The translations under genes and the position numbers were made by a program. 64,000 nt of DNA from the NCBI RefSeq assembly GCF_023703085.1, contig NZ_JAMQJY010000002.1, positions 62,001 through 126,000 on the forward strand, read 5' to 3'. The stretch is from Alkalicoccobacillus plakortidis (GTDB lineage: Bacteria; Bacillota; Bacilli; Bacillales; Bacillaceae_D). Below are positions 14,979 through 46,680 of the stretch, in pieces. The notes beneath the pieces are model-generated. The model searched no databases and was not told where the DNA came from. It worked only from the letters and a program-made list of their open reading frames with translations. Position 1 is the stretch's first letter; every line of letters starts with the position of its first letter.

Positions 14979-15390
14979 TGCTTGTTAGGTTTTGGTTTTG
15001 GCCTGTTAGGTGGATCCTTGGCCTGTTAGATCTTTGTTTTGGCTCGTTAGGTCGATCCTTGGCCTTTTAATTCCCTGCTTTGGCTCGTTAGGTGGTTTCT
15101 TGGCCTGCTAGTTCTCCGCTTTGGCTTATTAGGATGGCTCTTGGCCTGTTAGTTCCCTACTTTGGCTCGTTAGGTCGATCCTTGGCCTTTTAGTTTTCAT
15201 TTTGGCTCGTTAGACTTGTTCTTGGCTTGTTAGATCTCCGATTTGGCTTGTTAGACTCGTTCTTGGCCTGTTAGTTCCCCGCTTTGGCTTGTTAGACTTC
15301 CTCTTGGCCTGTTAGGTCCCCGCTTTGGCTCGTTAGACAGCCTCTTGGCCTATTACTTCCCCGCTTTGACTTGTTACACTCGCTCTTGCC
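14979..15390. repeat. Phased intergenic array A: 20 units of 20-21 bp (41-bp double unit)
   Basis: Twenty imperfect units whose TTAG core recurs every 21 then 20 bases, first at 14985 and last at 15374 (mean 20.5). Odd units read TTTGGCTCGTTAG and even units TTGGCCTGTTAG, each followed by 8 or so variable bases, so the true repeat is 41 bp. On the minus strand the cores are CTAACGAGCCAAA and CTAACAGGCCAA. It fills the space between two converging genes, right after a terminator. The period is not a multiple of three, so it is not coding. There are no identical repeats and no cas genes, so it is not CRISPR. Confidence 0.9.
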
Positions 15391-15405
15391 CCGCATCTAA
15401 GCCCT

Positions 15406-15873
15406 TCAATCCTCCGCCTTCAATAAAATTGACCAAAATAAAACATACACAGGATATATCAAAGTTACAGTAAGCATCGCCCCTGCCAAGGTTAATGCCA
15501 TTACAGTACTTTGATTTAATGCTGCTAGAAGAAACGCCTGATTCGCTAAAATCAACATCATAAATGAACAATTCTTCAGCACAATACTTAATGTTCTACC
15601 TTTTTCATACATCAAGTGTTTGTTTGCTTCTGTTAAATTTATATAATTAAGATTCTCTGGTTTTCGAGTAATTAAATGAATAACTAACCAGAGAACAATC
15701 GCTCCTCCAGGCATAAGAAGTAATAATGCCTTACTCCCCCACTGTGTTGCTTCGTTGAGATGATTATATTGGATAGCTATTTCTGCTGGGAGCGTTGGCC
15801 AAAAATAAATGAGATAGCCTACATGAATAACAAACACAATGAAACCTAGACTTAACATTAACTTCCCCATCAT
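15406..15873 (-). CDS. DUF1648-type membrane protein
   Basis: A 155-residue protein with four to five hydrophobic segments. After the first helix comes LPAEIAIQYNHLNEATQWGSKALLLLMP, the DUF1648 signature (P..I..HYN..G....WGSK). Members are small membrane proteins, some tied to SdpI-like immunity, but this copy has only the core domain. Function unknown. It converges on array A. Confidence 0.75.
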   Translation of the reverse strand: MMGKLMLSLGFIVFVIHVGYLIYFWPTLPAEIAIQYNHLNEATQWGSKALLLLMPGGAIVLWLVIHLITRKPENLNYINLTEANKHLMYEKGRTLSIVLKNCSFMMLILANQAFLLAALNQSTVMALTLAGAMLTVTLIYPVYVLFWSILLKAED

Positions 15874-15901
15874 CTATTGCACCTTCACCATCGTTCCGAC
15901 T

Positions 15902-16882
15902 TTATTTACTACTAATCTCTTGAGAAAACGCTAAGACTTTTTTATACGTCTCGCTTTCTTCATATTGATCAAATATGCCACTCTCTTCACACCATTTATA
16001 TGCTTTTTCCAAACCCTCTTTTAAAAGAATCTTCGGTAATGGCAAACCATATTCAAGAAGTTTACTGTTGTCCATTACATACGTTATGTCTCTAAAAGGA
16101 AAAAACTCTCCTACCGTGACATTCAATTCAGACATCCCTTTTTCAGTTATTCCACTAACAGGTACTTTTGTCCCTGCCACTTCATTTATTGTTTGAACAA
16201 GGGTTAGCCAATCCACCTGTTCTGCGTCCGTTAAGTTAAATGCTTCACCCACAACTAATTTGTTATCCATTGATTCAAGTAAAATCTGTACAACATCTTT
16301 AATATGAATAAATTGTACCTTTGCCTCACCTGAAACTGGGATCACAATGGGCAGAGATTTTACAGCTCTACTAAAAAGAAAGGATTCCCGCTTTAAGTTA
16401 TTTCCTTCACCATAGATATAGGAAGGTCTAAAAGTCACATACGGAAATGCTGTCTCTTTATATAGATTCATAAGATAATCTTCAGCCAGCTTTTTATTAA
16501 AGCCATACTCTTTCCAGTTCTCGTTTCTACCTCTCTCATCAGATTCCTTCATGAGCTCGGTAGTTGGTTTATAAACAGCGCCAGAACTCACAAAGATATA
16601 TCTCTTTAATGAGCTAGTATCTAGAGAATCCACCAGAATCTCAACATCTTCTTTTGTATAAGCAGATACATCAAATATGTAGTCATAATTCTTATTTTTA
16701 AAGATTGCTTTCATTTGCTCTTTGTTTTTTCGATCTGCAATAAGATGCTTGTGGTAACCGTCAAAATCGATCTCTCTTTGCCCTCTTGTGACAAAGTCTA
16801 CTTCATATCCTTTTTTGATAAGTTCCAATAAAATAGCCCGACTTATAAATTCCGTTCCACCCATTACTAATACTTTATTCAT
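15902..16882 (-). CDS. NAD-dependent epimerase/dehydratase family protein
   Basis: A 326-residue extended short-chain dehydrogenase. The N-terminal nucleotide motif VLVMGGTEFISRAI (GGTxFIG-like, with Ser in place of the usual third Gly) and the FVSSGAVYKPT region are followed by YGFNKKLAEDYL, containing the catalytic YxxxK, and a sugar-nucleotide-like C-terminal domain. It resembles stand-alone nucleoside-diphosphate-sugar epimerases. The substrate is not evident and there are no polysaccharide genes nearby. Confidence 0.82.
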   Translation of the reverse strand: MNKVLVMGGTEFISRAILLELIKKGYEVDFVTRGQREIDFDGYHKHLIADRKNKEQMKAIFKNKNYDYIFDVSAYTKEDVEILVDSLDTSSLKRYIFVSSGAVYKPTTELMKESDERGRNENWKEYGFNKKLAEDYLMNLYKETAFPYVTFRPSYIYGEGNNLKRESFLFSRAVKSLPIVIPVSGEAKVQFIHIKDVVQILLESMDNKLVVGEAFNLTDAEQVDWLTLVQTINEVAGTKVPVSGITEKGMSELNVTVGEFFPFRDITYVMDNSKLLEYGLPLPKILLKEGLEKAYKWCEESGIFDQYEESETYKKVLAFSQEISSK

Positions 16883-16965
16883 AAAAATCCCCTGTCTACA
16901 ATATCGTTTTTTTCAACTATAGTTCATCTTACCACTTCCCTACCTCACCACTCTATAGCAAGTAC

Positions 16966-17298
16966 ATGACTTCTATAGTAATATATATTTGGAAACAAAA
17001 AGACTGGGGTGTATGGAAAGTTAACAGCTATTATGAAGTGAATCATGGGGAGACGCAAAGCGATCTTCCATCAAGAGTTAAAACAGCTCAATTAAAACAA
17101 CATAAAAAACGAAACAAAGCGTTAAATTTCATTAGATTTTTCCTTTTATTCTGCGTTGCAGTTGCCGTCAGTTATTATTCAAGTAAATTTTTCCCTCGCG
17201 AAAGCGGCACAGGTATCTACTTAATAGGTGTGTTTATAAGTTCAATTGTTACGATGGGATTTTGGTTTTTAGTCTTTTCATCCTTCCAAAAAAAATAA
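16966..17298 (+). CDS. Small membrane protein of unknown function
   Basis: A 110-residue ORF with a basic hydrophilic N-terminal half (NHGETQSDLPSRVKTAQLKQ) and two C-terminal helices (about 57-75 and 84-104). The ATG at 16966 has no convincing ribosome site and no better in-frame start exists, so the 5' end may contain a sequence error. Followed by a long hairpin. Confidence 0.5.
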   Translation: MTSIVIYIWKQKDWGVWKVNSYYEVNHGETQSDLPSRVKTAQLKQHKKRNKALNFIRFFLLFCVAVAVSYYSSKFFPRESGTGIYLIGVFISSIVTMGFWFLVFSSFQKK

Positions 17299-17332
17299 CA
17301 AAGTGAACATGCTACATGTCCACTTTGTTATT
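17294..17332 (+). terminator. Long hairpin, likely bidirectional terminator
   Basis: Arms of 18 bases (17294-17311 and 17315-17332) pair with one or two mismatches around a 3-base loop, between two converging genes. The T-run is weak. Confidence 0.6.
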
Positions 17333-17343
17333 CATTCCTTGCC

Positions 17344-18421
17344 TTACCAGCCTCGCTCGTACTGCGGTGGTGTATCCAGGTGATCTGTTTGATGGATAGC
17401 TTGTGCGGCACGTAGTGGCCAATAAGGATCGCGCAGTAATTCACGAGCTAACAGGATGATATCTGCGCGTCCATTACGAATATGATCATCTGCCTGCATG
17501 CCTTCAGTAATTAGCCCTACCGCTGCCGTAGCAATTCCTGCTTCACGACGAATTCTCTCTGCAAACTGAACCTGATAACCAGGCCCAACATCAATGGATG
17601 GATTCGGTGTGTTTCCACCAGAGCTGCAGTCAATTAAATCAACGCCCTCATCCTTCAATCGCTTAGAAAGCTCAACAGAATCTTCTATCGTCCATCCACC
17701 TTCTGCCCAATCCGTGCTTGAGATACGTACAGTAAATGGTAGATTCTCTGGCCACTCCTTACGCATAACACGAACCGTTTCCAAGCACAAAACGAATTCG
17801 ATTTTCAAAACTACCACCATACTCATCTGTGCGAGTATTACTTAACGGCGAATAAAAGCTATGAGCCAAGTACCCATGAGCTGCATGAAATTCCATCCAT
17901 TCAAAGCCTGCCTCTAAGCTACGAATTGTCGCCTGCCGGAATGCCTCCTGTACCTCATGAATGTCTTCAATAGGTAGCTCTTTCGGTGTACGATATGCTT
18001 CAGAAAAACCGATTGCACTAGGACCAACAACATCCAAGCCACCTTCTTGATCTGATACATCTACCCCATGATCAGGCTGCTTCCATGGTGCATAAGATGA
18101 TGCTTTACGCCCAGCATGGGCTAGTTGGATGCCAGGCACAGCGCCTTGATCTTTAATAAATCGAGTAATAGGTTTAAATGCCTGCGTATGTTCATCCGTA
18201 TATATGCCAAGATCCTCAGGAGAAATTCGGCCTTCTGGAACAACCGCACTTGCTTCAGCAATCACAAGACCCGCGCCACCTACTGCACGAGAACCTAAGT
18301 GAACCAAATGCCAGTCATTAGGTATGCCATCTACTGCACTATATTGACACATTGGGGATACCCCAATTCGATTTCGCAACGTGATTCCTTTAATTGTGAA
18401 TGGTGAAAATAAATTAGCCAT
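17344..18421 (-). CDS. Old yellow enzyme (XenA/YqjM class NADPH dehydrogenase), one-base frameshift
   Basis: FMN-dependent ene-reductase. N-terminal NRIGVSPMCQYSAVDG (Cys and Tyr of this OYE class), WHLVHLGSRAVGGAGL, the flavin and substrate residues FHAAHGYLAHSFYSPLSN, and the C-terminal GRADIILLARELLRDPYWP with a closing YERGW are present. The frame breaks at about 17790, where CTTGGAAACGG should be CTTGAAACGG; the interval is 359 codons plus one base. GGGAGG precedes ATG 18421. It likely reduces electrophilic enones or nitro compounds in stress defence. Confidence 0.9.
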
Positions 18422-18564
18422 ACGTTCCTCCCATATTTTATGATTACACGTATTTTACACTCGTAATCTAGCAAGTGTCGAAGATTCTGCTTGGTACTGA
18501 CTCCATATTGGTTAGACAGTTAGAACGAAAATCATTCTGACCTGCACGTACCGTACCTTTCACC

Positions 18565-19119
18565 TTATTTCTCACCTACAATTATATATACTGGTTGATT
18601 TGCTATCTTCTTCTCAGGAAAAAACATCTCTTTTATTGTGAAGCCTGCTTTTATCATTTCAGTTTTCATCTCTATAGATTTCACTCTAGGTGCTTGGATT
18701 CCTTCTACATGTTCTAGTTCAATACAAACAAATAAACCATTGTTTTTTAGTACCTTATAGATTTCACTTAATGCTGTAGGGAGAGGTTGAACCTCGTGTA
18801 ATGAAATTGAAGCTACTGCTTTATCAAAACTCTCACTCTCTAACGGAATATCTTTGAAGTCACCTACTCTTGTTTCTATGTTCTTGATATTTTTTTGATT
18901 GGCAACCTTTTCAAGATAGTGAAGAACATCTGAGTCAAAATCAAAAGCAACCACTGACTTCACGCGCTCGGCAATAGCAAGTGACATATAACCCGTTCCG
19001 GCTCCTACATCTAATACACGATCTTCTCGATTAAGCGATAAGTATGTACATACTTCATTAGCCTTTACCCTTTCAATGTTTTCTAAGTTATTAATTTTTC
19101 TTTCAAGTCTTTGGTTCAT
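18565..19119 (-). CDS. Class I SAM-dependent methyltransferase
   Basis: A 184-residue Rossmann methyltransferase: motif I VLDVGAGTGYMSLAIAE (about 36-52), acidic VVAFDFDSDVLHYLE, DFKDIPLESESFDKAVASISLHEV (motif IV) and a UbiE/ArsM-like C-terminus. Substrate unknown. Monocistronic by spacing. Confidence 0.88.
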   Translation of the reverse strand: MNQRLERKINNLENIERVKANEVCTYLSLNREDRVLDVGAGTGYMSLAIAERVKSVVAFDFDSDVLHYLEKVANQKNIKNIETRVGDFKDIPLESESFDKAVASISLHEVQPLPTALSEIYKVLKNNGLFVCIELEHVEGIQAPRVKSIEMKTEMIKAGFTIKEMFFPEKKIANQPVYIIVGEK

Positions 19120-19214
19120 AATTATAACCCCCTATTAAAGATATAACGAGTCTATAATAACTATAATATATCCAACACGTATTGTAAAAGTTTTTAATTT
19201 CATTTAAATTGACC

Positions 19215-19259
19215 GAATACTAAAAACCAATATCAAGTTCGACATTGGTTTTAGTATTC
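19215..19259 (-). terminator. Hairpin at the end of the DJ-1 gene
   Basis: Arms 19215-19231 and 19244-19259 (GAATACTAAAAACCAAT with ATTGGTTTTAGTATTC) overlap the stop codon of the DJ-1/PfpI gene. Confidence 0.6.
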
Positions 19260-19874
19260 TTCTATTAAATATTCAATTGTTTCGGCTGTTCTCTTTGATG
19301 CTTCTTCTCCTACTAGTTTTTGAACAATATAAAGAGCCATATTTATCCCTGATGAAACGCCTGCAGAAGTGATAACCTTGCCTTCATCAACATATTTTAC
19401 GTCCTTTACAACTTCTGTATAAGGATAAGCTCTAGTCAATATACCTAACGCAGCACGATTGGTTGTAGCTCTTTTTCCTTTTAGCAAACCAGACTCTGCT
19501 AAAATGATAGCTCCTGTGCACACAGAAGCTATCATTGCATCATTATTTCGAGCAACCCACTCTACCACTTCTTTGATTTTAAGAACCGTTTGAATCGTTT
19601 TTAATGTCCCTCCAGGAACCAAGATCAGATCAAAGATGGGAGCCTTTTGAAAACAATAATCAGGTGTAATCATTAACCCGTGATTAGCTTTAATCGGCTT
19701 ACCCTCTTGAGAGACCGTATACACTTTAAACGGTTTATTATCTAAGTAATTCGTCAATAGCTCCTTAACATCCTTTTTATGAAACGTTGTCATATTAAAC
19801 ACTTCATAAGGACCAACAAAATCTAATGCATCAACACCATCAAAAAGAAGAATACCTACGTGGTACGTTTTCAT
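19251..19874 (-). CDS. DJ-1/PfpI family protein (isonitrile hydratase-like)
   Basis: A 207-residue single-domain member. It contains GILLFDGVDALDFVGPYEVF at the N-terminus and the nucleophile elbow SVCTGAIILAESGLLKGKRATTNR (Cys near 115), the pattern of the GATase1-like group that includes isonitrile hydratase and the N-terminal domain of FtrA regulators. No HTH domain is attached. AGGAGG precedes the ATG. Specific activity unknown. Confidence 0.85.
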   Translation of the reverse strand: MKTYHVGILLFDGVDALDFVGPYEVFNMTTFHKKDVKELLTNYLDNKPFKVYTVSQEGKPIKANHGLMITPDYCFQKAPIFDLILVPGGTLKTIQTVLKIKEVVEWVARNNDAMIASVCTGAIILAESGLLKGKRATTNRAALGILTRAYPYTEVVKDVKYVDEGKVITSAGVSSGINMALYIVQKLVGEEASKRTAETIEYLIEEY

Positions 19875-19925
19875 TTTATCAGCCTCCTAGTAGTTCCCAT
19901 TATACCCGACCTGGGTATTAGAAAC

Positions 19926-19958
19926 AGCAAAAAACCAATATCTAATCTGATATTGGTT
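19926..19958 (-). terminator. Rho-independent terminator after GNAT gene
   Basis: AACCAATATC / GATATTGGTT stem with 6-base loop and a minus-strand T-run. Confidence 0.8.
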
Positions 19959-19990
19959 AAATAGTAAGGTGTATAAACGAAGACATCAAA

Positions 19991-20488
19991 TCACTCCTCA
20001 TTCAGCTCTAAAGAATACCCCTTATAAATCTTACCCCAATCAATCGGTCTTTCCATTCTTCGTTCTGGCTCTTTTAGTGCAGAAAACCCGTACTGTTCAT
20101 ACAATGTGTGAGCATCATTTGTGCCGAGATTAAATCGAGTTCCACTTAACTGTGGATGCTCTGTTATAACCTCAAGCAACCACTTACTTAACCCTCGCCC
20201 CCGATAATCAGGCAAGATAAACACATCACATAACCAAGAAAAACGCACAAGATCAGAAATAACACGCGCGAATCCAACTAGCTTCGCCTCATTATTCGTT
20301 GGATCTTGATCATACACACCATAACAAAGAATCGAGTTATCTATTGCAGCTATCACAAGCTCCTTAGGCGTATCCTCTGCCCACCAGTAAGAATCTTTGG
20401 TTAGGAAGTTGTGAATGGCATCAATATCTAGATACTGTTTATCTGTGCTAATAGTGAAAGTTTTGTGAGTGTAGGTTAGGTTTTTCAA
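19991..20488 (-). CDS. GNAT family N-acetyltransferase
   Basis: A 165-residue acetyltransferase with the acetyl-CoA loop LPDYRGRGLSKWLLE (about 112-126) and the C-terminal YEQYGFSAL. TTG start at 20488, 8 bases after GGAG. The first 45 residues resemble YjaB/YvbK-type stand-alone GNATs. Acceptor substrate unknown. Confidence 0.85.
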   Translation of the reverse strand: MKNLTYTHKTFTISTDKQYLDIDAIHNFLTKDSYWWAEDTPKELVIAAIDNSILCYGVYDQDPTNNEAKLVGFARVISDLVRFSWLCDVFILPDYRGRGLSKWLLEVITEHPQLSGTRFNLGTNDAHTLYEQYGFSALKEPERRMERPIDWGKIYKGYSLELNEE

Positions 20489-20641
20489 AGTAACTTACTC
20501 CGTTTCTAATCGTTTTTTTATTCTGTAGTTGATATTTCATTTATTTTAGCATAATTACCCAGTACTATTGGTGGTCAATGTACAAAAAAGAGAGAAAGCA
20601 CTCTTCTCTCTTAATCATCAATTTTTATTTCAGAAAGCTTT

Positions 20642-21139: not shown

Positions 21140-22617
21140 TCATGTCCCACAAAACGTCCGATAATCTTTGCCTTCATCTCCTGGTCCGTGCTTATACGCT
21201 TCTTGCTCAGTGCTGTAAGCATAAGGATCCTGCATCACTTGAAGTAATTGCTGCAAGACGCTGTAATCCCCTTCCTCAACTGCTGCATCGAGCGCTTCTT
21301 CCACACGATGGTTACGGGGAATGATCGCTGGGTTGTGGGTTTTCATCAGTTGATGTACTTCCTCTGTTGATTGTGATTGACGTGTGAGTCTTGCCTTCCA
21401 TTGATCGTGCCAATCTGAGAATTCTTTTGAGCAGCTTAGTGCGGGTTCTTCGGAAAGATCTGCAAGTGTAAGAGCTCTGAATGTATTGGTAAAGTCAGCT
21501 TCAGTTGATTTCATGATGCTAAACAAGTTATCAATTAGCTCTTGATCTTGTTCTTCTATTGTAAAAAGTCCAAGCTTTTTACTCATGCCACCATACCAGC
21601 TATTCAGATAAATGGTTTTGAAGGTCGCTAACTCATCTTGTACAAGTTTGATGGCTTCATCCTTATCCTGATGAATAAGTGGGACAAGTGTTTCGGCAAA
21701 GCGAGCAAGATTCCAGTTTGCGATATAGGGTTGGTTACCATATGCATATCGTGCTTGGACATCAATCGAGCTGAATACAGTTTCTGGATTATACGTATTC
21801 ATAAAGGCACATGGTCCGTAGTCAATCGTTTCGCCACTTATTGCCATGTTATCGGTGTTCATCACGCCATGGATAAAACCTACTAGCTGCCATTCTGCGA
21901 TAAGCTCGGCCTGTCTCTTGAGCACTAGTTGATAAAAAGTGAGATACGGGTTTTCAGTGGATGCAGCTTCTGGATAGTGACGGTTGATCGCATAATCCGC
22001 AGCTTTTTTAGTTCTTCGGTATTTCCTTTTGCGGCAGCATATTGGAATGTGCCAACACGAAGATGACTTGATGCAACTCTAGTCATAATCGCTCCTGGTA
22101 AACCAATCTCACGTAGAACTAGCTCTCCTGTTGTCACCACTGCGAGGCTTCTTGTTGTCGGAATACCTAGACTATGCATCGATTCACTAATAATATATTC
22201 ACGTAACATTGGACCAAGTGCAGCTCGACCGTCTCCACCTCTTGAAAAAGCCGTACGTCCAGAGCCTTTGAGCTGAATATCAAAGCGCTTTTGATCTGGA
22301 GTGATCTGTTCTCCTACTAACAGTGCACGTCCATCTCCAAGCATTGTAAAATTACCAAACTGATGCCCTGCATAAGCCTGTGCGAGTGCATGCCCGCCTT
22401 CAGGAATGTTGTTTCCAGCCAGTATATTTACTTCGTTTTGTTCACGTAAACGTGCAGAATTAAGCCCAAGTTTTGCTGCAAGAGATTCATTTAATAATAC
22501 AAGTTCAGGTGACTTCACAATATTTGGTTCAAACAGGCTGTAAAAATCCTTTGGTAGCTTCTCATAGCTATTATCAAAATTCCAGCCCACTTTATGTTGA
22601 AGGTCTTGATGAGACAT
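21140..22617 (-). CDS. selO: Protein adenylyltransferase SelO/YdiU (one-base frameshift)
   Basis: Pseudokinase-fold AMPylase that modifies proteins during redox stress. Key segments are [64 protein letters not shown] and, in the second frame, [23 protein letters not shown] (catalytic NTDN region). The frame is lost at about 22009, where a run of six A should be seven, giving [14 protein letters not shown]. The interval is 493 codons minus one base, in line with the usual roughly 490 residues. Likely intact in the organism. Confidence 0.92.
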
Positions 22618-23280: not shown

Positions 23281-23440
23281 GATTTTTGAGCACTTTGTTT
23301 ATATTTTTGCGCATATTGAACTTTTTTGAACGTATTCATTTACTTTTTGAGCACCAAGCCTTCCCTTTTTGAGCATTTTTAAAATTTTTGCCCCTTCGTA
23401 TCTTGTTATTGAGCATCTGGATCTTTTTTTTGCCCATGTA
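23281..23440. repeat. Phased intergenic array B1: 8 units of TTTTTGAGCA, about 20.6 bp apart
   Basis: Core G positions at 23288, 23309, 23328, 23349, 23371, 23390, 23411 and 23432 (steps 21,19,21,22,19,21,21). The consensus is TTTTTGAGCA(C/T) plus about 10 variable bases; three units are worn (GCGCA, GAACG, GCCCC). It occupies the divergent intergenic region between the tandem membrane paralogues and the Sm-multidrug gene. The same core forms array B2 at 30.5 kb. Confidence 0.85.
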
Positions 23441-29578: not shown

Positions 29579-30133
29579 ATGCACATAACACTTACAAAGC
29601 TCTTAAAAGAGTTAGAGAATAAAAATCTCACCTGGGCTATTGGTGGCTCTCTTATGCTTTCAATTCGCGGATTAAAAACGACACCAAATGATATTGATCT
29701 ATTGGTTACACAAAAAGACGCTCAAACCATTAGTGGCATTTTGGATTCAATGGGTACACGTTTAGATCCTATCTCTAGTCATCCAGTATTCACTTCTAGT
29801 TATTTTGCAAAGTATGAAGTAGATGGAGTAGGAATTGATGTGATGGCTGACTTTGGTGTGAAGCATAAAGCTGGTTTGTATGTTTGTCCTTTTGCTACTG
29901 ATTCAGTGACGACTATTCATGTTGTAGATGAATCACCGTGTCCGCTAAGTTCAATTGAAGATTGGTATGTTCTGTATTCGCTTATGCCTAATCGAGAGGG
30001 TAAAGTCGAGCTCATTGAGCATTATTTTAAGGAACATGGTGTATCGCAGCCTTTGTTGTTGGAACGCGCATTAGATCAGCCTCTTCCTTTAGAGATAAAA
30101 GATAAAATTAATCGTTTGCTTACGGATTTTTGA
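29579..30133 (+). CDS. Nucleotidyltransferase-fold protein
   Basis: 184 residues from ATG 29579, 8 bases after AAGAAGG; a GTG three codons upstream overlaps that site. WAIGGSLMLSIRG and TPNDIDLLV are the GGS and DxD motifs of the minimal nucleotidyltransferase fold, as in AbiEii and MNT proteins. No partner antitoxin or HEPN gene is adjacent, so a toxin-antitoxin role is not supported here. Confidence 0.75.
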   Translation: MHITLTKLLKELENKNLTWAIGGSLMLSIRGLKTTPNDIDLLVTQKDAQTISGILDSMGTRLDPISSHPVFTSSYFAKYEVDGVGIDVMADFGVKHKAGLYVCPFATDSVTTIHVVDESPCPLSSIEDWYVLYSLMPNREGKVELIEHYFKEHGVSQPLLLERALDQPLPLEIKDKINRLLTDF

Positions 30134-30486
30134 CTGTACTAAGATGTTCGTGAATTAATTTCCATTCACCGTCTAATAACACAAAAACATTCGTTGCTCT
30201 TCCGCTACCAGAAATGAATTCTCCATCTACATACCCAGAGTATTGATAGGTATACATGCAAGAAGCACTGTTATTATCTTTAGTAAGCCAAGTCACATCC
30301 TTTGCAGCGTAGACTTCATCATTAATATAATTCCAGCTTCCATTAAAATACTGTTCGATTTTTTCCAAGGTGTCACAAGTTTGGTCACTAAAGAAATAAA
30401 TTGCGTTTGGGTGCAGTAGCTTGGCGACTTCCTTAAAGTCATGTTGTGTTTGTTGCGTAAATATATTCATCTAATATAGAATCCAT
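30120..30486 (-). CDS. NTF2/SnoaL-like (DUF4440-type) protein, frameshifted near start
   Basis: The frame read without correction starts at 30470, but a better start is ATG 30486 behind AAGGAGAGG. It gives MDSILDEYIYATNT, then one extra A at about 30440 shifts to HDFKEVAKLLHPNAIYFF, so the interval is 122 codons plus one base. The remainder (MYTYQYSGYVDGEF...SGRATNVFVLLDGEWKLIHEHLS) is the DUF4440/SnoaL calcium-calmodulin-association-like fold. Enzymatic role unknown. Confidence 0.75.
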
Positions 30487-30510: not shown

Positions 30511-30668
30511 ATTTTTGAGCAACTCATGTCTGTTTTCGAGCATTTTTCAAAATTTTGAGCATTCCTCGTTTGTTTTGAGCATATACGATGTTTTTTTGAG
30601 CATTATTGTTATCTTTGAGCACCGTCTTTCATTTTTTGAGCACTTATCCTTTATTTTTGAGCATTTGC
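30511..30668. repeat. Phased intergenic array B2: 8 units of TTTTTGAGCA, about 20.3 bp apart
   Basis: Core G at 30517, 30538, 30557, 30577, 30598, 30617, 30638 and 30659 (steps 21,19,20,21,19,21,21). The consensus TTTTTGAGCA(T/C) equals that of array B1. It fills the whole gap between the stop of the nucleotidyltransferase gene (30671) and the start of the NTF2-like gene (30486), both on the minus strand, with GAGC on the plus strand. Confidence 0.88.
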
Positions 30669-38237: not shown

Positions 38238-38245
38238 TACTATTC

Positions 38246-40620: not shown

Positions 40621-40654
40621 ACCGTCCTAAGTATAATTCTAGGACGGTCTTTTT
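40621..40654 (+). terminator. Rho-independent terminator of rap2-phr2
   Basis: ACCGTCCTA / TAGGACGGT stem with 10-base loop followed by CTTTTT. The remaining bases 40530-40620 hold no gene. Confidence 0.9.
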
Positions 40655-40659
40655 GCACA

Positions 40660-40712: not shown

Positions 40713-40774
40713 TCGCGCGGGCTTCAATTTTTTTACACATTATGATTGCGTTTTGAGCATTCAGCTTTCCACCC

Positions 40775-41785
40775 TTATTCCTCTATTAGCTCAATGTTGA
40801 ATGAGTCAAACTCTAAATCCTTACCTGGTGCCTTGATGATCGGTACTATCGTCATTTGATCTGACATTTCAACTTCTTCTAGATCTACTCGAATTCTGCT
40901 ATTAAAGTGGAGCCATTGATTGCTATAATCTCCACTTCCATCACCCGATAGTATGGTTGTTTTTCCTGTGTTTGGATCGATTAATTTAATACTAATGGAT
41001 GGAGATAGATAGCTCTCATCCTTTTTTAGTGGTTCTTTTAATGTAATAGGAATGATGAGCTCGTTTTCGGTTTGAGTGATACTATCAATGTTAAGAGTAA
41101 TGCCTTCAAGTACTTGGTTATTATAAACAGGGATCATCGGCAGGCCCTCGACTTCTTTTATTAAAAAAGTAAAGTCCCATACCTCATCCTGATCTGCAGT
41201 TAGAGTCATTCCGAGCGTAAACTCATTAGGTAAATCATCTCGTAAATCCAATTCATTGTATCCTGTTAGCTCAGTGGGGCTAATCACTTGTTCAGATGTA
41301 AACTCACCGTAGGCGTTCAGTTCTTTCTCATCTACCCTGTGACTAAAAACAGAATCAATAGCACTTTCCTCAAAATTTTCCGTTTCAGATTCGATACTGT
41401 AGTTAATGGTTAGTACGCTTTGATCATATAGAGCGTCTTCGATTGTAACAGTTTGCCCATCTATTGTTTGTGAGCCACCCTCAAATCTGCGTAATTCTAA
41501 ATTTTTTGGTTGCTCATCGATTACTTCTGAATCTTCATCTTCCAAAAGTGCACTTAAAAAAGGGATATTCGAAAAACCACCTGTATTTGATTGAGAAAGG
41601 ATGGTTGCACCAATGAGCAAAGCACAGCCAACCGCAACACTACTTGAGAGAAACACAAACAAGTTTCTTGGTCTCGCCATCGATGACGTTTCTTGAGTTA
41701 ATTGTTGCTCTGCTTGAGAAATGCCTTTTTGAATCGCTTGACGTACTTCGTGTTTTGGGAACTCTGATTCAGATGATTTTCTCAA
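40775..41785 (-). CDS. DUF4179-type anti-sigma factor
   Basis: About 336 residues. TTG 41785 is 8 bases after GAGGAG; a GTG at 41794 overlaps that site. A cytoplasmic N-terminus of about 45 residues is followed by one helix (LFVFLSSSVAVGCALLIGATIL) and a large external domain with EGGSQTIDGQTVTIEDALYDQSVLTINYSIE, as in DUF4179 membrane anti-sigma factors. It overlaps the sigma gene, so the two products are made together. It should hold the sigma factor inactive until an envelope signal. Confidence 0.88.
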   Translation of the reverse strand: MRKSSESEFPKHEVRQAIQKGISQAEQQLTQETSSMARPRNLFVFLSSSVAVGCALLIGATILSQSNTGGFSNIPFLSALLEDEDSEVIDEQPKNLELRRFEGGSQTIDGQTVTIEDALYDQSVLTINYSIESETENFEESAIDSVFSHRVDEKELNAYGEFTSEQVISPTELTGYNELDLRDDLPNEFTLGMTLTADQDEVWDFTFLIKEVEGLPMIPVYNNQVLEGITLNIDSITQTENELIIPITLKEPLKKDESYLSPSISIKLIDPNTGKTTILSGDGSGDYSNQWLHFNSRIRVDLEEVEMSDQMTIVPIIKAPGKDLEFDSFNIELIEE

Positions 41786-42305
41786 AATATTCACTCCTCT
41801 CCAGCTGCTTTTTTAATTGTTTTTTTCCACGTCTCAAATGTGTTTTTACCGTATTCACTGGTATATTCATCGTTTCAGAGATTTGTTTAATTGGTAAATC
41901 ATGATAATAAAAAAGAATAAGAACAGATTGGTAAGGTTCTTCAAGCTGATAAACAAGCTCTTTTAATGTTTGAGTTGATTGGGTAGGAACCGTTTTATAG
42001 TCTACACGTTTTAAAAGCTCCTTTTCATCAAAAGGAATCATGCGTTGTTTTTTCTTTACTATTTTGTAGCATTCGCGAATTAGAATTTTTGTCAGCCATG
42101 TTGAAAAATATTCAGGGTGTTTAAGCTGATGGATAGAAAGGTATGCTTGGCAAACCGCTTCCTGTATAGCATCCAGGGCATCATCTTTATTTTTCACATA
42201 GGAAAGTGCGGTGTAATACAATGTCTCTTCTACAGAGAAAAGAAGCGTCTCAAATGCTTGCTTATCTCCTGAAATTGCTCGTTTCACATCATCGATTGTA
42301 TGCAT
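41769..42305 (-). CDS. ECF-type RNA polymerase sigma factor
   Basis: A 178-residue sigma-70 family member. Region 2 has LYYTALSYVKNKDDALDAIQEAVCQAYLSI (about 31-60), region 4 has LEEPYQSVLILFYYHDLPIKQISETMNIPVNTVKTHLRRGKKQLKK (about 121-165). Layout and partner are those of SigV/SigM-like ECF factors with DUF4179 anti-sigma proteins. AAGGGAGG precedes the ATG. Likely autoregulated (see promoter). Confidence 0.95.
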   Translation of the reverse strand: MHTIDDVKRAISGDKQAFETLLFSVEETLYYTALSYVKNKDDALDAIQEAVCQAYLSIHQLKHPEYFSTWLTKILIRECYKIVKKKQRMIPFDEKELLKRVDYKTVPTQSTQTLKELVYQLEEPYQSVLILFYYHDLPIKQISETMNIPVNTVKTHLRRGKKQLKKQLERSEYFEKII

Positions 42306-42325
42306 CTCTTACCTCCCTTCATACA

Positions 42326-42355
42326 TTAGAGAACACTGACGCTAAAAAAGTTTCA
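42326..42355 (-). promoter_or_regulatory. Candidate ECF autoregulatory promoter
   Basis: On the minus strand TGAAAC followed by TTTTTT, 17-18 bases before TCTCTAA, about 20 bases upstream of the sigma start codon. The TGAAAC-T-run -35 is typical of ECF promoters in Bacillus; the -10 resembles but does not equal CGTCTAA. Confidence 0.5.
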
Positions 42356-42436
42356 ACAAAATAAAAATAGACAGTGAACACCATTCGATGTCCACTGCAT
42401 TGTTTAGTTTAGGTTTGTATATCCAACATCTAAATC

Positions 42437-42450
42437 CGGTACGTGAAATT
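42437..42450. repeat. 14-base element shared by two lipoprotein gene ends (copy 2)
   Basis: Exact copy of the element at 38224-38237 (CGGTACGTGAAATT), again just 3' of a lipoprotein gene on the minus strand. A weak hairpin (CAGTG...CACTG, about 42370-42395) lies further downstream. Confidence 0.5.
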
Positions 42451-42460
42451 ACCAAATATC

Positions 42461-43033
42461 CTACTCCAATCCTTCTCTCACAATAAACGAGATCTCAGAA
42501 GAAATTTCATAAGACTTAGATGGTTCTTGGTCTATGATAAAATCAGCAATTCCTGTCACTGAATATTCACCTACTGGCAAGCCCTCATTCTCGTTAAACT
42601 CTTTAAGAAATGACTGATAGTCGGCATCTGCTTCAGTTGACCCAGACGCACCTGAATACTGCTCTTGTAGAGGTTGATCTCGCACTAGATCTGTCGTTAC
42701 ATATGGTTCTGGCATTGGATAATCAACGGTGTATCCACGAAGATGTTCATAAAAAAGAAAGAAAAACGGTGAATAGGCGTGACCGATCGTTATGCTCTCT
42801 TCATCTCCTTCATACACAAGCTCTGCATAGATCTCAATAGGTTCCCCTACTTGATACTCTTCTTTTGTACTAACAAGACGATAACTAAAATCATCCTGCT
42901 GCTCTTCGCCAATTGGTTGTGCACCTGGGTATGGGCGATCTGGATCTGCCGGTTCATCACCTAATGTTACATCCGTTTGATTGCTACACCCTGCTACGCT
43001 AAAAATAAAAATAAGCATCAAAGACCTTTTCAT
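42461..43033 (-). CDS. Lipoprotein of unknown function
   Basis: 190 residues from ATG 43033 (AAGGGAG 9 bases upstream); signal peptide MKRSLMLIFIFSVAGC with lipid-modified Cys16. The soluble part has an immunoglobulin-like pattern, YRLVSTKEEYQVGEPIEIYAELVYEG, and ends GEYSVTGIADFIID. Acidic overall. Not recognised beyond this. Confidence 0.72.
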   Translation of the reverse strand: MKRSLMLIFIFSVAGCSNQTDVTLGDEPADPDRPYPGAQPIGEEQQDDFSYRLVSTKEEYQVGEPIEIYAELVYEGDEESITIGHAYSPFFFLFYEHLRGYTVDYPMPEPYVTTDLVRDQPLQEQYSGASGSTEADADYQSFLKEFNENEGLPVGEYSVTGIADFIIDQEPSKSYEISSEISFIVREGLE

Positions 43034-43182
43034 CAGCATCCACTCCCTTGTAGAGATATGTAATCCCACCATACCATATTAAGGATAAAGCTAAAAACAG
43101 CCCTTAATATGCGGGCTGTTCTTAACATTACTTATTTAAGGTTTTGTCCATTTTGCTCGATGACTTCTTTGCCCGAGAAAAA

Positions 43183-44592
43183 TTATCGTCTAGAATGAAA
43201 AGAATTGGCTGGAGATTCATCTTTCAATTCAAACTGATAGTGATCCGCGTCTACAAAATCGGGATCATCATAAATAGATTGTTCATCACTGCCCGTCAAA
43301 TCCTGAAAAGCTTCTAGTGAGCTAACTTGCTCTCCTTGCCATATCCAAATTGGCTTTTTATTTGTTTCCTTATGGTATACGTTTTGAGTCAATGTGTTAT
43401 CTATACTCTCTTCGTATTCGTTATTCACAAAGATTCCAGAGTCGCTCGTAGTCATGATATTGTTTTTTATGACATTGTCTACTGCATTGTATTGAAACAA
43501 AAGCTGCCCGCCATCCATATCTTTTGTATCATTTTTATATAAGATATTCTCAGCTATCAGAGAGTCTGATGTACCACCCCGCTGATCATCGTATCCTCCA
43601 ATAGAAATTCCTGTGTAGTAGTTTTCATACACAGTGTTGCGAATTATTTCAATTCCACTTGCATTTTTGCCACCATGTTCAGAGGTTGCTTCAATGCCAA
43701 TGTCATTTTGATAAACCGTATTTCCTTCAATTAAAAGGTCACTGCCTCCATCTACATAAATGCCGCCTGCACTATAATTATTTCCGTAGCTCGGATTACC
43801 ATAGCTTGAGTTATGACGAACCGTATTGTTGCTAATGACCCCATTACGAGTAAAATCAGATGAAGCATCATGGGCCGTTCCTTCATATCCAATCAAGTCA
43901 ATGCCAATGTTGTTGTTGTGCTGAATGACATTCTCGGTGATTAAAAAGTCGCTTACATCTCCGTTTAATACAAGCGCTTCACTCCAACCAAGTTTTAAAT
44001 CCTCTAGCGTGTTCTCTTGGATAACAATATTTGATATAGGCTCATCACCATAAACTGCAATCCCGTGTGCATTACCTTCATCTGCATGTGTTTCAATATG
44101 ATGAATATGGTTTTTCAGCAATTGAATATGTTGACTATCCCCAGTCACTAGAATACCCATGACTGTTTTCTCATCACGATCTGTCTTTAAGTCACTTACC
44201 TCTAACCCTTTTATGGTTACGTAGCTTTTGTCTACAATGTTAATAAGTTCAATGTCTTCTTCATTATCTTGAAGTTCTCCCCCACTAATGTGAACCGGCT
44301 CATTTTGGTAAGCCTGAAAAACAATTGGTTCTGATTGGCTTCCACTGTGTTGGACGATTAAAGGCTCGTAATAGGTACCTTCTCTAATAAATACTTTCGT
44401 ACCTTTTATTGCTCGCTCTGATGCTTCTTCTAGTGTCAGCAATGGCTCTTCAATTGTCCCTGAATTTTCATTATCTCCATTGGTCGCTACATAAAGCTCA
44501 TTAAAATGAATCTCTTCTGAGCTGCTCTGAACGCAACCGGCTACTATCAAGCTTACAAAAATACTACTTATTACAAAACATTTTTTTATCAC
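43183..44592 (-). CDS. Lipoprotein with right-handed parallel beta-helix (pectate-lyase-like)
   Basis: 469 residues from a GTG at 44592 (lipobox SLIVAGC, Cys20); the open frame to 44658 has no ribosome site. ELYVATNGDNENSGTIEEPL followed by TLEEASERAIKGTKVFIREGTYYEP is the DUF1565 opening of the single-stranded beta-helix superfamily, followed by many NxI/NxV turns such as IVIQENTLEDL and LLIEGNTVYQND. Related proteins are polysaccharide lyases (PL9-like) or epimerases. Whether catalytic residues are kept cannot be judged here. It is divergent from the S66 peptidase 90 bases away. Confidence 0.82.
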   Translation of the reverse strand: MIKKCFVISSIFVSLIVAGCVQSSSEEIHFNELYVATNGDNENSGTIEEPLLTLEEASERAIKGTKVFIREGTYYEPLIVQHSGSQSEPIVFQAYQNEPVHISGGELQDNEEDIELINIVDKSYVTIKGLEVSDLKTDRDEKTVMGILVTGDSQHIQLLKNHIHHIETHADEGNAHGIAVYGDEPISNIVIQENTLEDLKLGWSEALVLNGDVSDFLITENVIQHNNNIGIDLIGYEGTAHDASSDFTRNGVISNNTVRHNSSYGNPSYGNNYSAGGIYVDGGSDLLIEGNTVYQNDIGIEATSEHGGKNASGIEIIRNTVYENYYTGISIGGYDDQRGGTSDSLIAENILYKNDTKDMDGGQLLFQYNAVDNVIKNNIMTTSDSGIFVNNEYEESIDNTLTQNVYHKETNKKPIWIWQGEQVSSLEAFQDLTGSDEQSIYDDPDFVDADHYQFELKDESPANSFHSRR

Positions 44593-44681
44593 GTAACTCG
44601 TTCCTCTCACCTTAAGAAAACATGGTTTTTCCTGATTATCGTTGCATATACATTTCAAATAAATGAAAAAGGAGGTCTTGA

Positions 44682-45602
44682 ATGGCTAACAAACCACCCG
44701 CATTACAGCAGGGAGATACAATTGGTATCGTCACACTTGGCAGTCCACTTGATCCAACCGTCATTAATGCTCGTGCCGATTACCTGCGGTCGCTAGGATA
44801 TAATGTCATTTTTGGCGAACATGTCTTTGATCAAGATGGATTTCTTGCAGGTACAGCAGAAGATCGAGCTGCTGACCTGATGAGTATGTTTACTAACGAT
44901 TCAGTAAAAATGATCCTTCCCTCACGTGGAGGTGTAGGTGTCGCTGGTATTCTGCCTTTTCTCGATTTTGATGTGATTAAGCAGAACCCCAAAATTTTAA
45001 CTGGATATAGTGATATCACCGTTTTGCAGAATGTATTGTTTCAATATGCTGACTTACTTAGTTTTCAAAGTCTATTACTTATTGATTTTCGTCCCACAAC
45101 TCCAGATTATAATTTTGACCAGTTTTACTCAGCTGTGTCAGCACCCATCCAAACAAAACCACTGACTAATCCACCTGAATTTCCGTTAATTAGTCTTGTC
45201 CCAGGAAATGTGTCTGGTACATTAATTGGTGGGAATCTGACATCCTTTGTCGACACGCTTGGTACAGACTTTGAGATTGATACAAGTGGAAAAATTCTCG
45301 TCATAGAAGAAACACATGAACCAATAAATACGGTCTATCGTTATTTAAGCCATTTAAAAGAAGCCGGCGTCTTTGATGAAGTGGCCGGTATCATTATGGG
45401 TGAGTGTACAAATTGTGAAGAAGCATATGGTGTTTCTTATAATGACCTCATAGAGAGCTTCATCGTCCCGCTAGGCAAACCCTTAATAACCAATCTCAAA
45501 ACAGCCCATGGCGAGTATAAAGCCGCTGTGCCCATTGGCGCCCGTGTGAATTTAGATGCTGTGAACTCCATCATTACCATCCTTGAACCAACTGTAAGCT
45601 AG
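44682..45602 (+). CDS. S66 family LD-carboxypeptidase (LdcA/MccF-like)
   Basis: A 306-residue serine peptidase. The N-terminal GDTIGIVTLGSPLD, MILPSRGGVGVAGILPFLDF and LTGYSDITVLQN (nucleophile Ser), VIEETHEP (Glu) and LKTAHGEYKAAVPIGA (His) build the Ser-Glu-His triad. The family removes D-Ala from tetrapeptides in peptidoglycan recycling, or cleaves microcin-C-like toxins and confers immunity. Which applies is unclear. AAGGAGG precedes the ATG. Confidence 0.92.
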   Translation: MANKPPALQQGDTIGIVTLGSPLDPTVINARADYLRSLGYNVIFGEHVFDQDGFLAGTAEDRAADLMSMFTNDSVKMILPSRGGVGVAGILPFLDFDVIKQNPKILTGYSDITVLQNVLFQYADLLSFQSLLLIDFRPTTPDYNFDQFYSAVSAPIQTKPLTNPPEFPLISLVPGNVSGTLIGGNLTSFVDTLGTDFEIDTSGKILVIEETHEPINTVYRYLSHLKEAGVFDEVAGIIMGECTNCEEAYGVSYNDLIESFIVPLGKPLITNLKTAHGEYKAAVPIGARVNLDAVNSIITILEPTVS

Positions 45603-45630
45603 GATTAGCTAGATTACAGTTGGTTTTTTC
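45586..45630 (+). terminator. Bidirectional terminator (S66 peptidase/GNAT)
   Basis: AACCAACTGTAA pairs with TTACAGTTGGTT across an inner CTAG repeat, followed by TTTTTT; it overlaps the stop codons of both converging genes. Confidence 0.85.
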
Positions 45631-46163
45631 CATTCATCAGCAAGTATTCCGTACACGATATGGTCTACGTAGAGATCATACAGTTTTTCAGCTTGTCGAA
45701 TTCGACCTTCCTCTACAAAACCTAATCGTTTTGGTATCTGCCTACTTTTATGATTTTGCTCCGCTACACGTATCTCTACTCTATTTAGCTTTAACTCGTA
45801 AAATGCGTAATCGATTAGAGCTTTCGCAACAGCCGTCATAATCCCTTTACCTTGATGAACATCCGCCAACCAGTATCCTATCTTTGCTATGTCACTTTTC
45901 CAATCAAGCTCATTAAACCCAGCAATCCCAACCATTTTCTCGTTATATCTAATCGCAACATTTATACTCTTATTGTCCGCATAGCTTTTTAAGGAAAAAT
46001 CAATAAATCTTCTAGTATCCTCAACGCTTTTTATTTGATCTAACCACGGGAGCCACTGCCGAAGATAATTTCGCGATTGATCGGTTAGTATAAAAAGCTC
46101 ATCTGCATCAAGCGTATTTAGTAAGGTTAAGTCTATCTCTTTTTGATTTATATGTAATTGCAT
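45609..46163 (-). CDS. RimJ/RimL-type GNAT acetyltransferase
   Basis: A 184-residue member of the ribosomal-protein-serine acetyltransferase group (YdaF-like): YLRQWLPWLDQIKSVEDTRRF, IGYWLADVHQGKGIMTAVAKALIDYAF (acetyl-CoA loop, about 88-115) and NHKSRQIPKRLGFVEEG. Such proteins acetylate N-termini or small amines; the target is unknown. Confidence 0.88.
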   Translation of the reverse strand: MQLHINQKEIDLTLLNTLDADELFILTDQSRNYLRQWLPWLDQIKSVEDTRRFIDFSLKSYADNKSINVAIRYNEKMVGIAGFNELDWKSDIAKIGYWLADVHQGKGIMTAVAKALIDYAFYELKLNRVEIRVAEQNHKSRQIPKRLGFVEEGRIRQAEKLYDLYVDHIVYGILADEWKKPTVI

Positions 46164-46281
46164 TACATTTGCCCCAATTGCATGATTATAGATTTTAGTA
46201 TACCATTCAAAGACTTACTTGGAGTATTTTTAGACGAAAAGCATTTGTTGCAATTAGAGGTGGGCTCTATTGCATTGATAA

Positions 46282-46680
46282 TTGCTCGATCGTTTGGGTT
46301 TTTTGGTCCATCGTTTTGAATTTTGGTTTCTATCGTTTTGATTCGGGCTTCCATCGTTTCAATCTTATCTCTATCGCTCCATTTCCGGCTTCTATTGCTC
46401 CAATCTGTACTCTATCGCTCCATTTCAGGCTCCCATTGCTCCAATCTGTACTCTATCGCTCCATTTCAGACTCCCATTGCTCCAATCTTTACTCCATCGC
46501 TCCATTTCCAGCATCCATCGCTCCACTCGACCTTCCATCGCTCCATTTCCAGCATCCATCGCTCCACTCGACCTTCCATCGCTCCATTTCCAGCATCCAT
46601 TGCTCCACTCGACCTTCCATCGCTCCATTTCCAGCATCCATTGCTCGACTCGACCTCCCATCGCTCCAAATCCACACCAA
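46282..46680. repeat. Phased intergenic array C: 19 units of 20-22 bp (41-bp double unit)
   Basis: AT(C/T)G cores recur from 46289 to 46660 with steps of 21,22,21,20,21,20,21,... (mean 20.6). Mature units alternate CATCGCTCCATTTCCAGC and CATCGCTCCACTCGACC (21 and 20 bp); the first four units at the left edge are worn (ATCGTTTT). On the minus strand the core is GGAGCGATGG. It sits between two minus-strand genes and just before a terminator. Spurious Ser/Pro-rich frames arise on both strands because 3 x 41 nt gives an open periodic pattern; none is a gene. Confidence 0.92.

What the first reader, a model, noticed from the sequence alone, without database searches (positions are those of the whole stretch)
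14979..46680. One hidden rule for four intergenic arrays: a GAGC-containing core every 20-21 bp
Arrays at 14979-15390, 23281-23440, 30511-30668 and 46282-46680 look unrelated in sequence, yet share a spacing of 20.5, 20.6, 20.3 and 20.6 bp (measured core to core) and a core with GAGC on one strand (CTAACGAGCC, TTTTTGAGCA, GGAGCGAT). Spacing is kept while the bases between cores vary, so phase seems to be what is selected. Twenty to twenty-one bp is two helical turns, which would put every core on the same face of the DNA, as expected for a cooperative protein array, a nucleoid or terminator-insulator element, or an intrinsically bent region. They occur between converging, diverging and tandem genes, so they are not tied to one promoter type. 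I know of no named element with these properties.
Basis: partly seen in the sequence, partly recalled or inferred. Interest (0 to 1): 0.78.

Follow-up and report, generated by a model that had tools for sequence, protein, structure and literature searches.

The report
Helically spaced repeat arrays between genes
Dozens of gaps between genes in this alkaliphilic Bacillus relative hold tandem arrays with different core sequences but nearly the same spacing of about 20 base pairs (two turns of the DNA helix), which points to an undescribed class of chromosome element of unknown function.

Summary
The four arrays exist, and the 464 kb of contiguous chromosome around them holds 26 such non-coding arrays; 3 Markov-resampled controls gave none. 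Cores differ, yet a period-agnostic tandem-repeat search finds 19-22 or 39-41 bp periods in 28 of 31 non-coding arrays here and 10 of 10 in a congener, against 3 of 11 in other genera. Mean core spacing is 20.3 bp.

GAGC is only part of the rule: strongly over-represented, but filling at least half the units in 8 of 19 core families. GMGCA cores at this spacing recur in distant Bacillales genera.

New properties: the pyrimidine-rich strand is the C-skewed, presumably lagging, strand in 62 of 67 arrays. In three arrays shared by two species, cores change less than spacers. Arrays and cores turn over between species.

Best reading: phased multi-site DNA platforms, probably bound cooperatively by protein, spread and lost like satellites. 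The protein is unknown and no function is shown. The main rival is non-functional satellite DNA.

The parts
14983..15388 (+). Array 1: 20 units in the best chain, 41-bp dimers (core TTTGGCTYGTTAG / TTGGCCTGTTAG), mean spacing 20.47 bp, pyrimidine-rich on +; between convergent genes
   Evidence: orthologous short array with the TGTTAG core in G002 (L091:180-268); none seen in G001, G003 or A. porphyridii L036
23264..23440 (+). Array 2: 9 units, core TTTTTGAGCA with TTTTTGCGCA-like variants, mean spacing 20.12 bp
   Evidence: not seen at the orthologous place in G002
30513..30664 (+). Array 3: 8 units, core TTTTTGAGCA, spacings 19-21 (mean 20.29 bp), spacers differ from unit to unit
   Evidence: not seen at the orthologous place in G002
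46282..46680 (+). Array 4: 19 units, core TCCATCGCTCCA / CTATCGTTTC, 41-bp dimers, mean spacing 20.61 bp
   Evidence: at the same place G004 has a CCAAGA array (L094:6009-6324) and G002 what looks like a single remnant unit; none seen in G001, G003
14911..14957 (.). Bidirectional terminator-like hairpin (A7 ... T7) between the metallophosphoesterase gene and array 1; the DUF1648 gene on the other side would be read through the array to reach it
   Evidence: read by eye; missed by the simple scan
46683..46706 (.). Hairpin (ACCCGTGAAA / TTTCACGGGT) between the oxidoreductase stop codon and array 4; weak T-tail
   Evidence: read by eye; a similar hairpin is seen in G002; not found by the scan
13821..14912 (+). 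Gene left of array 1: calcineurin-like metallophosphoesterase
   Evidence: Pfam PF00149
15406..15873 (-). Gene right of array 1: DUF1648 protein; its stop codon is 18 bp from the array
   Evidence: Pfam PF07853; gap
30120..30470 (-). Gene left of array 3: SnoaL-like / DUF4440 protein
45609..46163 (-). Gene left of array 4: GNAT acetyltransferase
46725..47717 (-). Gene right of array 4: GFO/IDH/MocA oxidoreductase; its stop codon is 45 bp from the array

Best explanation
These are members of a genus-wide class of intergenic, helically phased direct-repeat arrays that act as DNA. A unit is a core of about 10-12 bp plus a spacer of about 8-11 bp; two units make a 40-41 bp dimer; arrays run from about 5 to some tens of units. 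The 20-20.6 bp period puts the cores on the same face of the helix. Shown: the period rule, the many core dialects (GAGC among the commonest words), the intergenic position, polarity following replication-strand skew, slower change of cores than spacers in one family, and turnover between species. Inferred: the cores are binding sites for one or more cooperatively binding proteins that coat the array as a nucleoprotein filament and so separate neighbouring transcription units or organise the nucleoid. The arrays spread and are lost like satellites or REPINs, each species amplifying its own dialects.
For: Period: 28 of 31 (G000, 864 kb) and 10 of 10 (G003, 820 kb) non-coding tandem arrays include 19-22 or 39-41 bp periods by period-agnostic TRF; 3 of 11 in 780 kb of other genera. 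Mean of 311 spacings is 20.30 bp, range 19-23. Core as a site: in 124 GMGCA units with the core on the C-skewed strand, the five bases before GMGCA (TTTYY) carry 0.9-1.6 bits and the spacer near zero; GMGCA itself is fixed by the choice of units. In three arrays shared with G002, spacings are largely kept and cores change less than spacers: 28/239 against 67/240 sites (p 1.1e-5, G000 as reference), 18/220 against 67/236 (p 1.8e-8, G002 as reference). In the two closest arrays spacers align each to its own counterpart, so unit-to-unit copying does not explain it. Recurrence: GMGCA triplets at this spacing number 128, 75, 174, 139 and 89 in G000-G004 with 0 in the reversed control; 198 in G076 (control 0); 111, 58, 57, 31, 7, 6, 3, 0 in eight genomes of another family (controls 0 to 35). 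DNA level: RNA folding is unremarkable on both strands. Polarity follows skew in 62 of 67, also between two lagging-strand genes (6 of 7). Nine of 26 arrays lie beyond a scanned terminator of each gene that reads toward them (my reading).
Against: No protein is identified; the many dialects would need several proteins or a loosely specific one. Core conservation was tested in one family, three arrays and one species pair; cores do not change less than flanks with G000 as reference (28/239 against 58/416, p 0.47; G002 as reference p 0.009). Only 11 of 28 core changes are between the letters allowed by TTTYYGMGCA. The 44 units with GMGCA on the other strand show a weaker, different profile. Terminators do not place all arrays in silent DNA: by my reading, 4 of 26 arrays are beyond one gene's terminator but before the other's, 2 lie before a terminator, 2 have no gene reading in, and 9 have none found. 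Arrays are gained and lost at given sites, so none looks individually essential. Dialects expand per species (CCAAGA triplets 349 in G004, 5 in G003), as neutral satellites do. All data are sequence only.
Confidence: 0.4

Rival explanations
1. Non-functional or selfish satellite DNA: a replication-linked amplification process with a two-turn ruler makes and spreads 40-41 bp dimers into intergenic DNA that tolerates them; orientation and pyrimidine bias come from the replication machinery.
For: 41, 82, 123 and 163 bp higher-order periods; dialect expansions differ by species (ATCGYTY triplets G000 149, G002 62, G004 50, G001 and G003 0; reversed controls G000 5, G002 0, G004 15, G001 1, G003 0. 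CCAAGA 349 in G004, 5 in G003, controls 0); site-by-site gain, loss and core replacement; polarity follows skew even between lagging-strand genes (6 of 7 arrays, about 4 independent sites by my reading).
Against: Cores change less than spacers with each spacer staying at its place; bounded information around the core; the same GMGCA core recurs at the same spacing in distant families. I know of no process with a 20-bp ruler (recalled).
Confidence: 0.33
2. Transcription insulators at the RNA level: the pyrimidine-rich strand, when transcribed in the lagging-strand direction, acts as a Rho-loading site and stops antisense or read-through RNA at the ends of leading-strand genes.
For: C above G and T above A on the C-skewed strand (C 0.296, G 0.173, T 0.357, A 0.173); arrays favour convergent gaps; at least six of 26 arrays lie before a scanned terminator of some gene reading in (my reading), so some are probably transcribed; a roughly 10 bp half-period resembles the spacing of Rho contacts (recalled).
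Against: RNA from arrays is not unusually unstructured (mean z 0.07 lagging, -0.38 leading, 67 arrays); the TTTTTGAGCA core has no YC dinucleotide; the pyrimidine bias also holds in divergent gaps (9 of 10); nine of 26 lie beyond the scanned terminators.
Confidence: 0.12
3. Phased-bend or gyrase-type supercoil sites, comparable to BIME-2: periodic DNA at gene ends wraps a topoisomerase or architectural protein.
For: T-tract arrays have high predicted curvature (17 arrays, mean 0.131 against 0.030 shuffled, 16 of 17 above); the gyrase motif has 10.75-bp periodic arms and BIME-2 are intergenic gyrase sites in E. coli (PMC6379681, passages).
Against: The other 34 arrays have little curvature (0.042 against 0.023, 21 of 34 above their shuffles). 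The half-period is 10.15, not 10.75 bp. Sequence-specific cores are not needed for bending.
Confidence: 0.08
4. Guide-RNA arrays of the TIGR or CRISPR kind.
For: TIGR arrays also alternate 8-12 nt repeats with about 9-nt spacers, and repeats differ between loci (PMC12045711, passages).
Against: Edge and loop repeats differ in TIGR, whereas here both half-units share one core; spacers are themselves repeated in many arrays; 26 arrays in 464 kb; no Nop-domain or cas-like gene among the 13 window proteins scanned with Pfam, 8 of which flank arrays.
Confidence: 0.02

Closest known systems
Bacterial intergenic minisatellites / tandem repeats (VNTR-type)
   Same: Head-to-tail units, 41-bp and higher-order periods, turnover between species
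   Different: One period shared by unrelated cores over the genome, core-spacer anatomy, polarity with replication skew, slower change of cores than spacers in the family tested
REP / BIME / REPIN sequence populations (REPIN: PMC8049555, abstract and outline seen)
   Same: Many dispersed intergenic copies kept as a population in a genome
   Different: REPs are short palindromes with stem-loops (recalled); these are direct, phased repeats without unusual RNA folding; no RAYT link was looked for
Plasmid iterons (recalled)
   Same: Direct repeats of about 20-22 bp with a conserved core, one per two helical turns, bound by a protein on one face
   Different: Chromosomal, dozens of loci, several dialects, no rep gene among the scanned flanking proteins of the window arrays
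TIGR arrays of TIGR-Tas systems (PMC12045711, passages seen)
   Same: Short conserved repeats alternating with about 9-nt variable stretches, sequences differing between loci
   Different: Both half-units share one core, period 40-41 not about 36, no tas gene among the scanned proteins, spacers often repeated

Membership tests
Bacterial minisatellite | Head-to-tail copies of a 10-100 bp unit | tested here: met
   TRF
Bacterial minisatellite | Copy number differs between strains | not testable with these tools
   One genome per species held; between species arrays differ or are absent
REP / BIME / REPIN | Palindromic units that fold into stem-loops | tested here: not met
   Mean fold z-scores near 0 on both strands over 67 arrays; repeats are direct
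REP / BIME / REPIN | Dispersed intergenic population in one genome | tested here: met
   26 non-coding in 464 kb; 40 of 45 detected in the G000 sample non-coding
REP / BIME / REPIN | Associated RAYT transposase | not tested
   No search for RAYT was made
Plasmid iterons | Direct repeats with a core, one per two helical turns | tested here: met
Plasmid iterons | Next to a replication-initiator gene at an origin | tested here: not met
   8 flanking proteins of the four window arrays scanned, none a replication initiator; the 83-aa ORF left of array 2 was not scanned
TIGR arrays | Two distinct alternating repeats (edge and loop) with unique 9-nt spacers, about 36-nt unit | tested here: not met
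   Half-units share one core; dimers are 40-41 bp; spacers repeat in many arrays
TIGR arrays | Nop-domain Tas gene beside the array | tested here: not met
   13 window proteins scanned, 8 of them flanking the four arrays, none with Nop; other loci not checked
Rho utilisation sites | C-rich, G-poor, unstructured RNA | tested here: inconclusive
   C above G met, unusual lack of structure not met
Intrinsically bent DNA | Phased A/T-tracts giving curvature | tested here: inconclusive

The most novel reading that the evidence does not exclude
A categorically new chromosome element of Bacillales: a period-defined, core-interchangeable array, in which a family of DNA-binding proteins with drifting specificities (GMGCA one widespread dialect) builds phased filaments between transcription units, oriented by replication. 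Sites persist while the core dialect may be swapped, as at site 4 (ATCGCTCCA in G000, CCAAGA in G004), so spacing rather than sequence would be the heritable signal.
Probability: 0.3. Interest if true: 0.9.

Novelty: new variant of a known kind. Interest (0 to 1): 0.7.

Why it matters
If functional, this is a genome-wide DNA element defined by helical phase rather than by one sequence, present at dozens of loci in a little-studied genus, and it would point to an unknown class of cooperative DNA-binding proteins acting between transcription units. If not functional, it shows that a bacterial genome can carry satellite-like DNA made with a strict two-turn ruler and replication polarity, which is a mutational process worth knowing. 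Either way the next experiment, a pull-down with an array against a scrambled one, is simple.

Tried and rejected
Protein-coding repeats: periods of 20, 40 and 41 bp shift the frame, and orthologous arrays differ by single-base indels; the ORFs across array 4 I take as artefacts of few stops. The 42-bp array at 59141-59667 is in a LysM protein and was excluded, as was C2:493274 (39-bp period); five of 45 G000 arrays were flagged coding, one of which (L056:10459, GCTCCA, lag 41) may be a false flag.

Known RNA families: none in the window at gathering scores. tRNA: none. Structured RNA: mean fold z near 0.

Mobile element or phage: no match of array 4 in plasmids or array 3 in phages. Seven viral contigs carry a TTTTTGMGCA-type triplet; core-agnostic detection found arrays of only 4 units in 2 of the 7; nothing points to a phage vehicle.

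Universal GAGC: rejected as universal. Caveat: the clustering there is single-linkage and its largest family (34 of 70 arrays) joins several dialects.

Universal bending: rejected.

All arrays beyond terminators: I first read as 17 of 26 arrays with a terminator in a flanking gap. Taking gene direction into account, only 9 are beyond the scanned terminators of each gene reading in, 4 are mixed, 2 lie before one, 2 have no gene reading in, 9 have none found. I lowered the best explanation from 0.42 to 0.40 and raised the RNA rival from 0.10 to 0.12 for this.

Outside the order: 1 of 299 genomes in the class scan matched, G000 itself (27 of the 299, G000 included, are of the same order). In the order scan 11 of 299 matched; the reversed control matched in 5 of 299, with up to 14.

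Other-word control: GACGM at the same spacing gave 0, 25, 0, 7, 0, 3, 1, 0, 0, 1 in G000-G004, G076, G172, G114, G196, G246; most G001 and G003 hits look like another array family, and its reversed control gave up to 58 (G246). The reversed control of GMGCA was not zero everywhere (G196 8+27, G268 1+3, G246 0+2, G145 2+0).

Biases: the detector only sees 19-22 bp, so the period claim rests on TRF. Stretches L046, L059, L060 (G000), L061-L066 (G002), L068 (G003) and L071 (G004) were chosen because they hold such cores; the G002 density is therefore too high. Arrays of one family are not independent.

Literature: 10 searches, listings read; no paper on such arrays appeared, but subscription journals are mostly not held.
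Full report
What was given. I checked this in the window, in 864 kb of the same genome including the window (G000, 4.37 Mb), in four congeners and in other Bacillales. The closest named relative found with the metallophosphoesterase beside array 1 is Alkalicoccobacillus porphyridii at 77% identity; its contig has the length of G004 contig C449 (199,806 bases), so G004 is probably that species (inference).

The four arrays. All are present. Anchored on their best 9-mer, spacings are 20.47 (20 units), 20.12 (9), 20.29 (8) and 20.61 bp (19). Exact GAGC or GCTC chains at 19-22 bp are long only in arrays 3 and 4 (8 and 15); 48 of 50 first-order resamplings had no chain of 3 and 2 had one of 3. Arrays 2 and 3 share the core TTTTTGAGCA. 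Arrays 1 and 4 are built of 41-bp dimers of two half-units with a like core and different spacers.

It is genome-wide. A detector for any 6-mer repeating at 19-22 bp found 28 arrays in the contiguous 464 kb of contig C2 and none in 3 third-order Markov controls; two lie in coding repeats, leaving 26. In the whole G000 sample 40 of 45 detected arrays are non-coding by an ORF test, in G003 14 of 16, in 780 kb of other genera 1 of 8. Because that detector fixes the spacing, the period claim rests on Tandem Repeats Finder, which accepts any period up to 500: of non-coding arrays scoring 60 or more, 28 of 31 (G000) and 10 of 10 (G003) include 19-22 or 39-41 bp periods, against 3 of 11 in the other genera; the three exceptions in G000 are 25, 191 and 61/122 bp. 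Over 26 arrays, 311 spacings are 19 (25), 20 (174), 21 (107), 22 (4), 23 (1), mean 20.30.

Many dialects. Cores include TTTTTGAGCA and TTTCCGCGCA, CCATCGCTCCA and CTATCGTTTC, TTGGCYTGTTAG, CTCTTTACCGATATC, TTTACCCG, CTCGATTCC, TTATCGGTAAT, CCAAGA and ATACATCG in congeners. Some occur in both orientations: the CAAGA-type array at C2:452655 has at its place in G002 an array with the core reversed (CTCTTG), by eye.

Is GAGC the rule? GCTC and GAGC are the first and third most over-represented tetranucleotides on the C-skewed strand against dinucleotide shuffles (283 against 112, z 16; 151 against 46, z 14; 67 arrays). Yet in only 8 of 19 clustered families do at least half of the units hold GAGC on either strand; AAGA reaches 9. 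So it is one of the commonest words, not a universal one. The GMGCA form at 19-22 bp gives 128, 75, 174, 139 and 89 triplets in G000, G001, G002, G003 and G004, 4 to 12 in the four genomes of genus g6, and 0 to 5 in the other 32 genomes of the family (41 in all; reversed control 0 in the genus, up to 3 elsewhere). With a leading T-tract it occurs in 11 of 299 genomes of the order, including G076, G172 and G114 of two other families; the reversed control occurs in 5 of 299. In the class scan it occurs in 1 of 299, G000 itself. Without the T-tract: G076 198, and 111, 58, 57, 31, 7, 6, 3, 0 in the eight genomes of the G172 genus. At 29-32 bp the same word gives 0-7 in ten genomes, so the spacing is specific. 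A shuffled word, GACGM, gives 0-25.

Polarity. On the strand with negative GC skew arrays are pyrimidine-rich: 62 of 67 arrays, 54 of 56 strongly asymmetric ones. Intergenic DNA without arrays has Y = 0.52 there, 1.7% of 355 pieces above 0.62; arrays average 0.64 with 67.5% of 40 above 0.62. This holds for arrays between two leading-strand genes (22 of 22), convergent (22 of 25), divergent (9 of 10) and between two lagging-strand genes (6 of 7, about 4 independent sites by my reading) (3 of the 67 lay too near an end). So it tracks replication strand better than gene direction. Core orientation is also biased in some families: TTTTTGAGCA pairs 28 to 1, ATCGYTY triplets 135 to 14 with 11 of the 14 at C1:64720-65156, between two samples with positive skew. 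CCAAGA is less strict (75 to 13).

Position. The 26 arrays lie in convergent (10), tandem (12) and divergent (4) gaps; gaps over 60 bp in general are 46, 180 and 72 of 298. A simple terminator scan, read with gene direction, puts 9 of 26 arrays beyond the terminators of each gene that reads toward them, 4 beyond one and before the other, 2 before a terminator, 2 where no gene reads in, and finds none at 9. By eye array 1 is of the mixed kind and array 4 lies beyond a hairpin. Beside distant arrays hairpins are seen by eye in L175, L176, L177, L178 and L180, not in L179. So some arrays are outside mRNAs and some are probably transcribed; this does not settle DNA against RNA.

Evolution. In a 90.8%-identical stretch of G002 two TTTTTGAGCA arrays are kept nearly unit for unit; a third is kept at C2:374648. 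Cores change less than spacers: 28/239 against 67/240 (p 1.1e-5), or 18/220 against 67/236 (p 1.8e-8) with G002 as reference; against the flanks, which include terminators and coding DNA, the difference is absent (p 0.47) or weak (p 0.009). Eleven of 28 core changes are between letters allowed by TTTYYGMGCA. Elsewhere turnover is plain: array 1 has a short counterpart with the TGTTAG core in G002 and none seen in G001, G003 or A. porphyridii; array 4 is CCAAGA in G004 and what looks like one remnant unit in G002; arrays 2 and 3 were not seen in G002; C2:463534 is empty and C2:388389 lacks its array in G002; two ATCGYTY arrays are shared with G002.

Structure. Transcripts of arrays fold about as shuffled ones do (mean z 0.07 and -0.38). 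Predicted curvature is high for 17 T-tract arrays (0.131 against 0.030 shuffled) and low for 34 others (0.042 against 0.023) (the 12 highest are all of the T-tract kind).

Mechanism. The anatomy (bounded core, free spacer, fixed two-turn period, constraint on cores) is what arrays of protein sites look like, and the intergenic position suggests a role between transcription units. No protein is known and several dialects must be explained. I give this 0.40 and non-functional or selfish satellite DNA 0.33. RNA-level insulation (0.12), gyrase-type sites (0.08) and guide-RNA arrays (0.02) are less likely.

Novelty. As tandem direct repeats they belong to a known kind; as a class defined by period with interchangeable cores and replication polarity I found no description in the searches (listings only; passages read of PMC4666352, PMC6379681, PMC12045711; abstract and outline of PMC8049555).

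Noticed in passing
window 59141-59667 (minus-strand ORF 58815-60218): A 42-bp array of 12.5 copies at 93% matches inside an ORF with an N-terminal LysM domain (PF01476), so 14-residue protein repeats. Its period is a multiple of three, unlike the intergenic arrays.
   Followed up: partly
window 21140-22617: Two adjoining minus-strand ORFs match the first (profile 6-201) and second (228-465) part of SelO (PF02696), so this gene appears split into two frames here.
   Followed up: partly
G000:C1:1-350000 (samples L041-L044): Four 20-kb samples with positive GC skew held no array passing as non-coding (one coding-flagged, L042), although a pattern search shows one at C1:64720-65156; array density may differ along the chromosome.
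   Followed up: no
L154:18638-20000 and L154:6210-7352 (G008): Long repeats of other periods (21/81/102 and 75 bp) in another genus; parts were flagged coding.
   Followed up: no
G246:C14:31955-32274: A long 21-bp array (unit GCGCATCYRTCGCTTACCCGA) in a distant genus combines words that resemble three dialects of the home genus (GCGCA, ATCG, TTACCCG).
   Followed up: no
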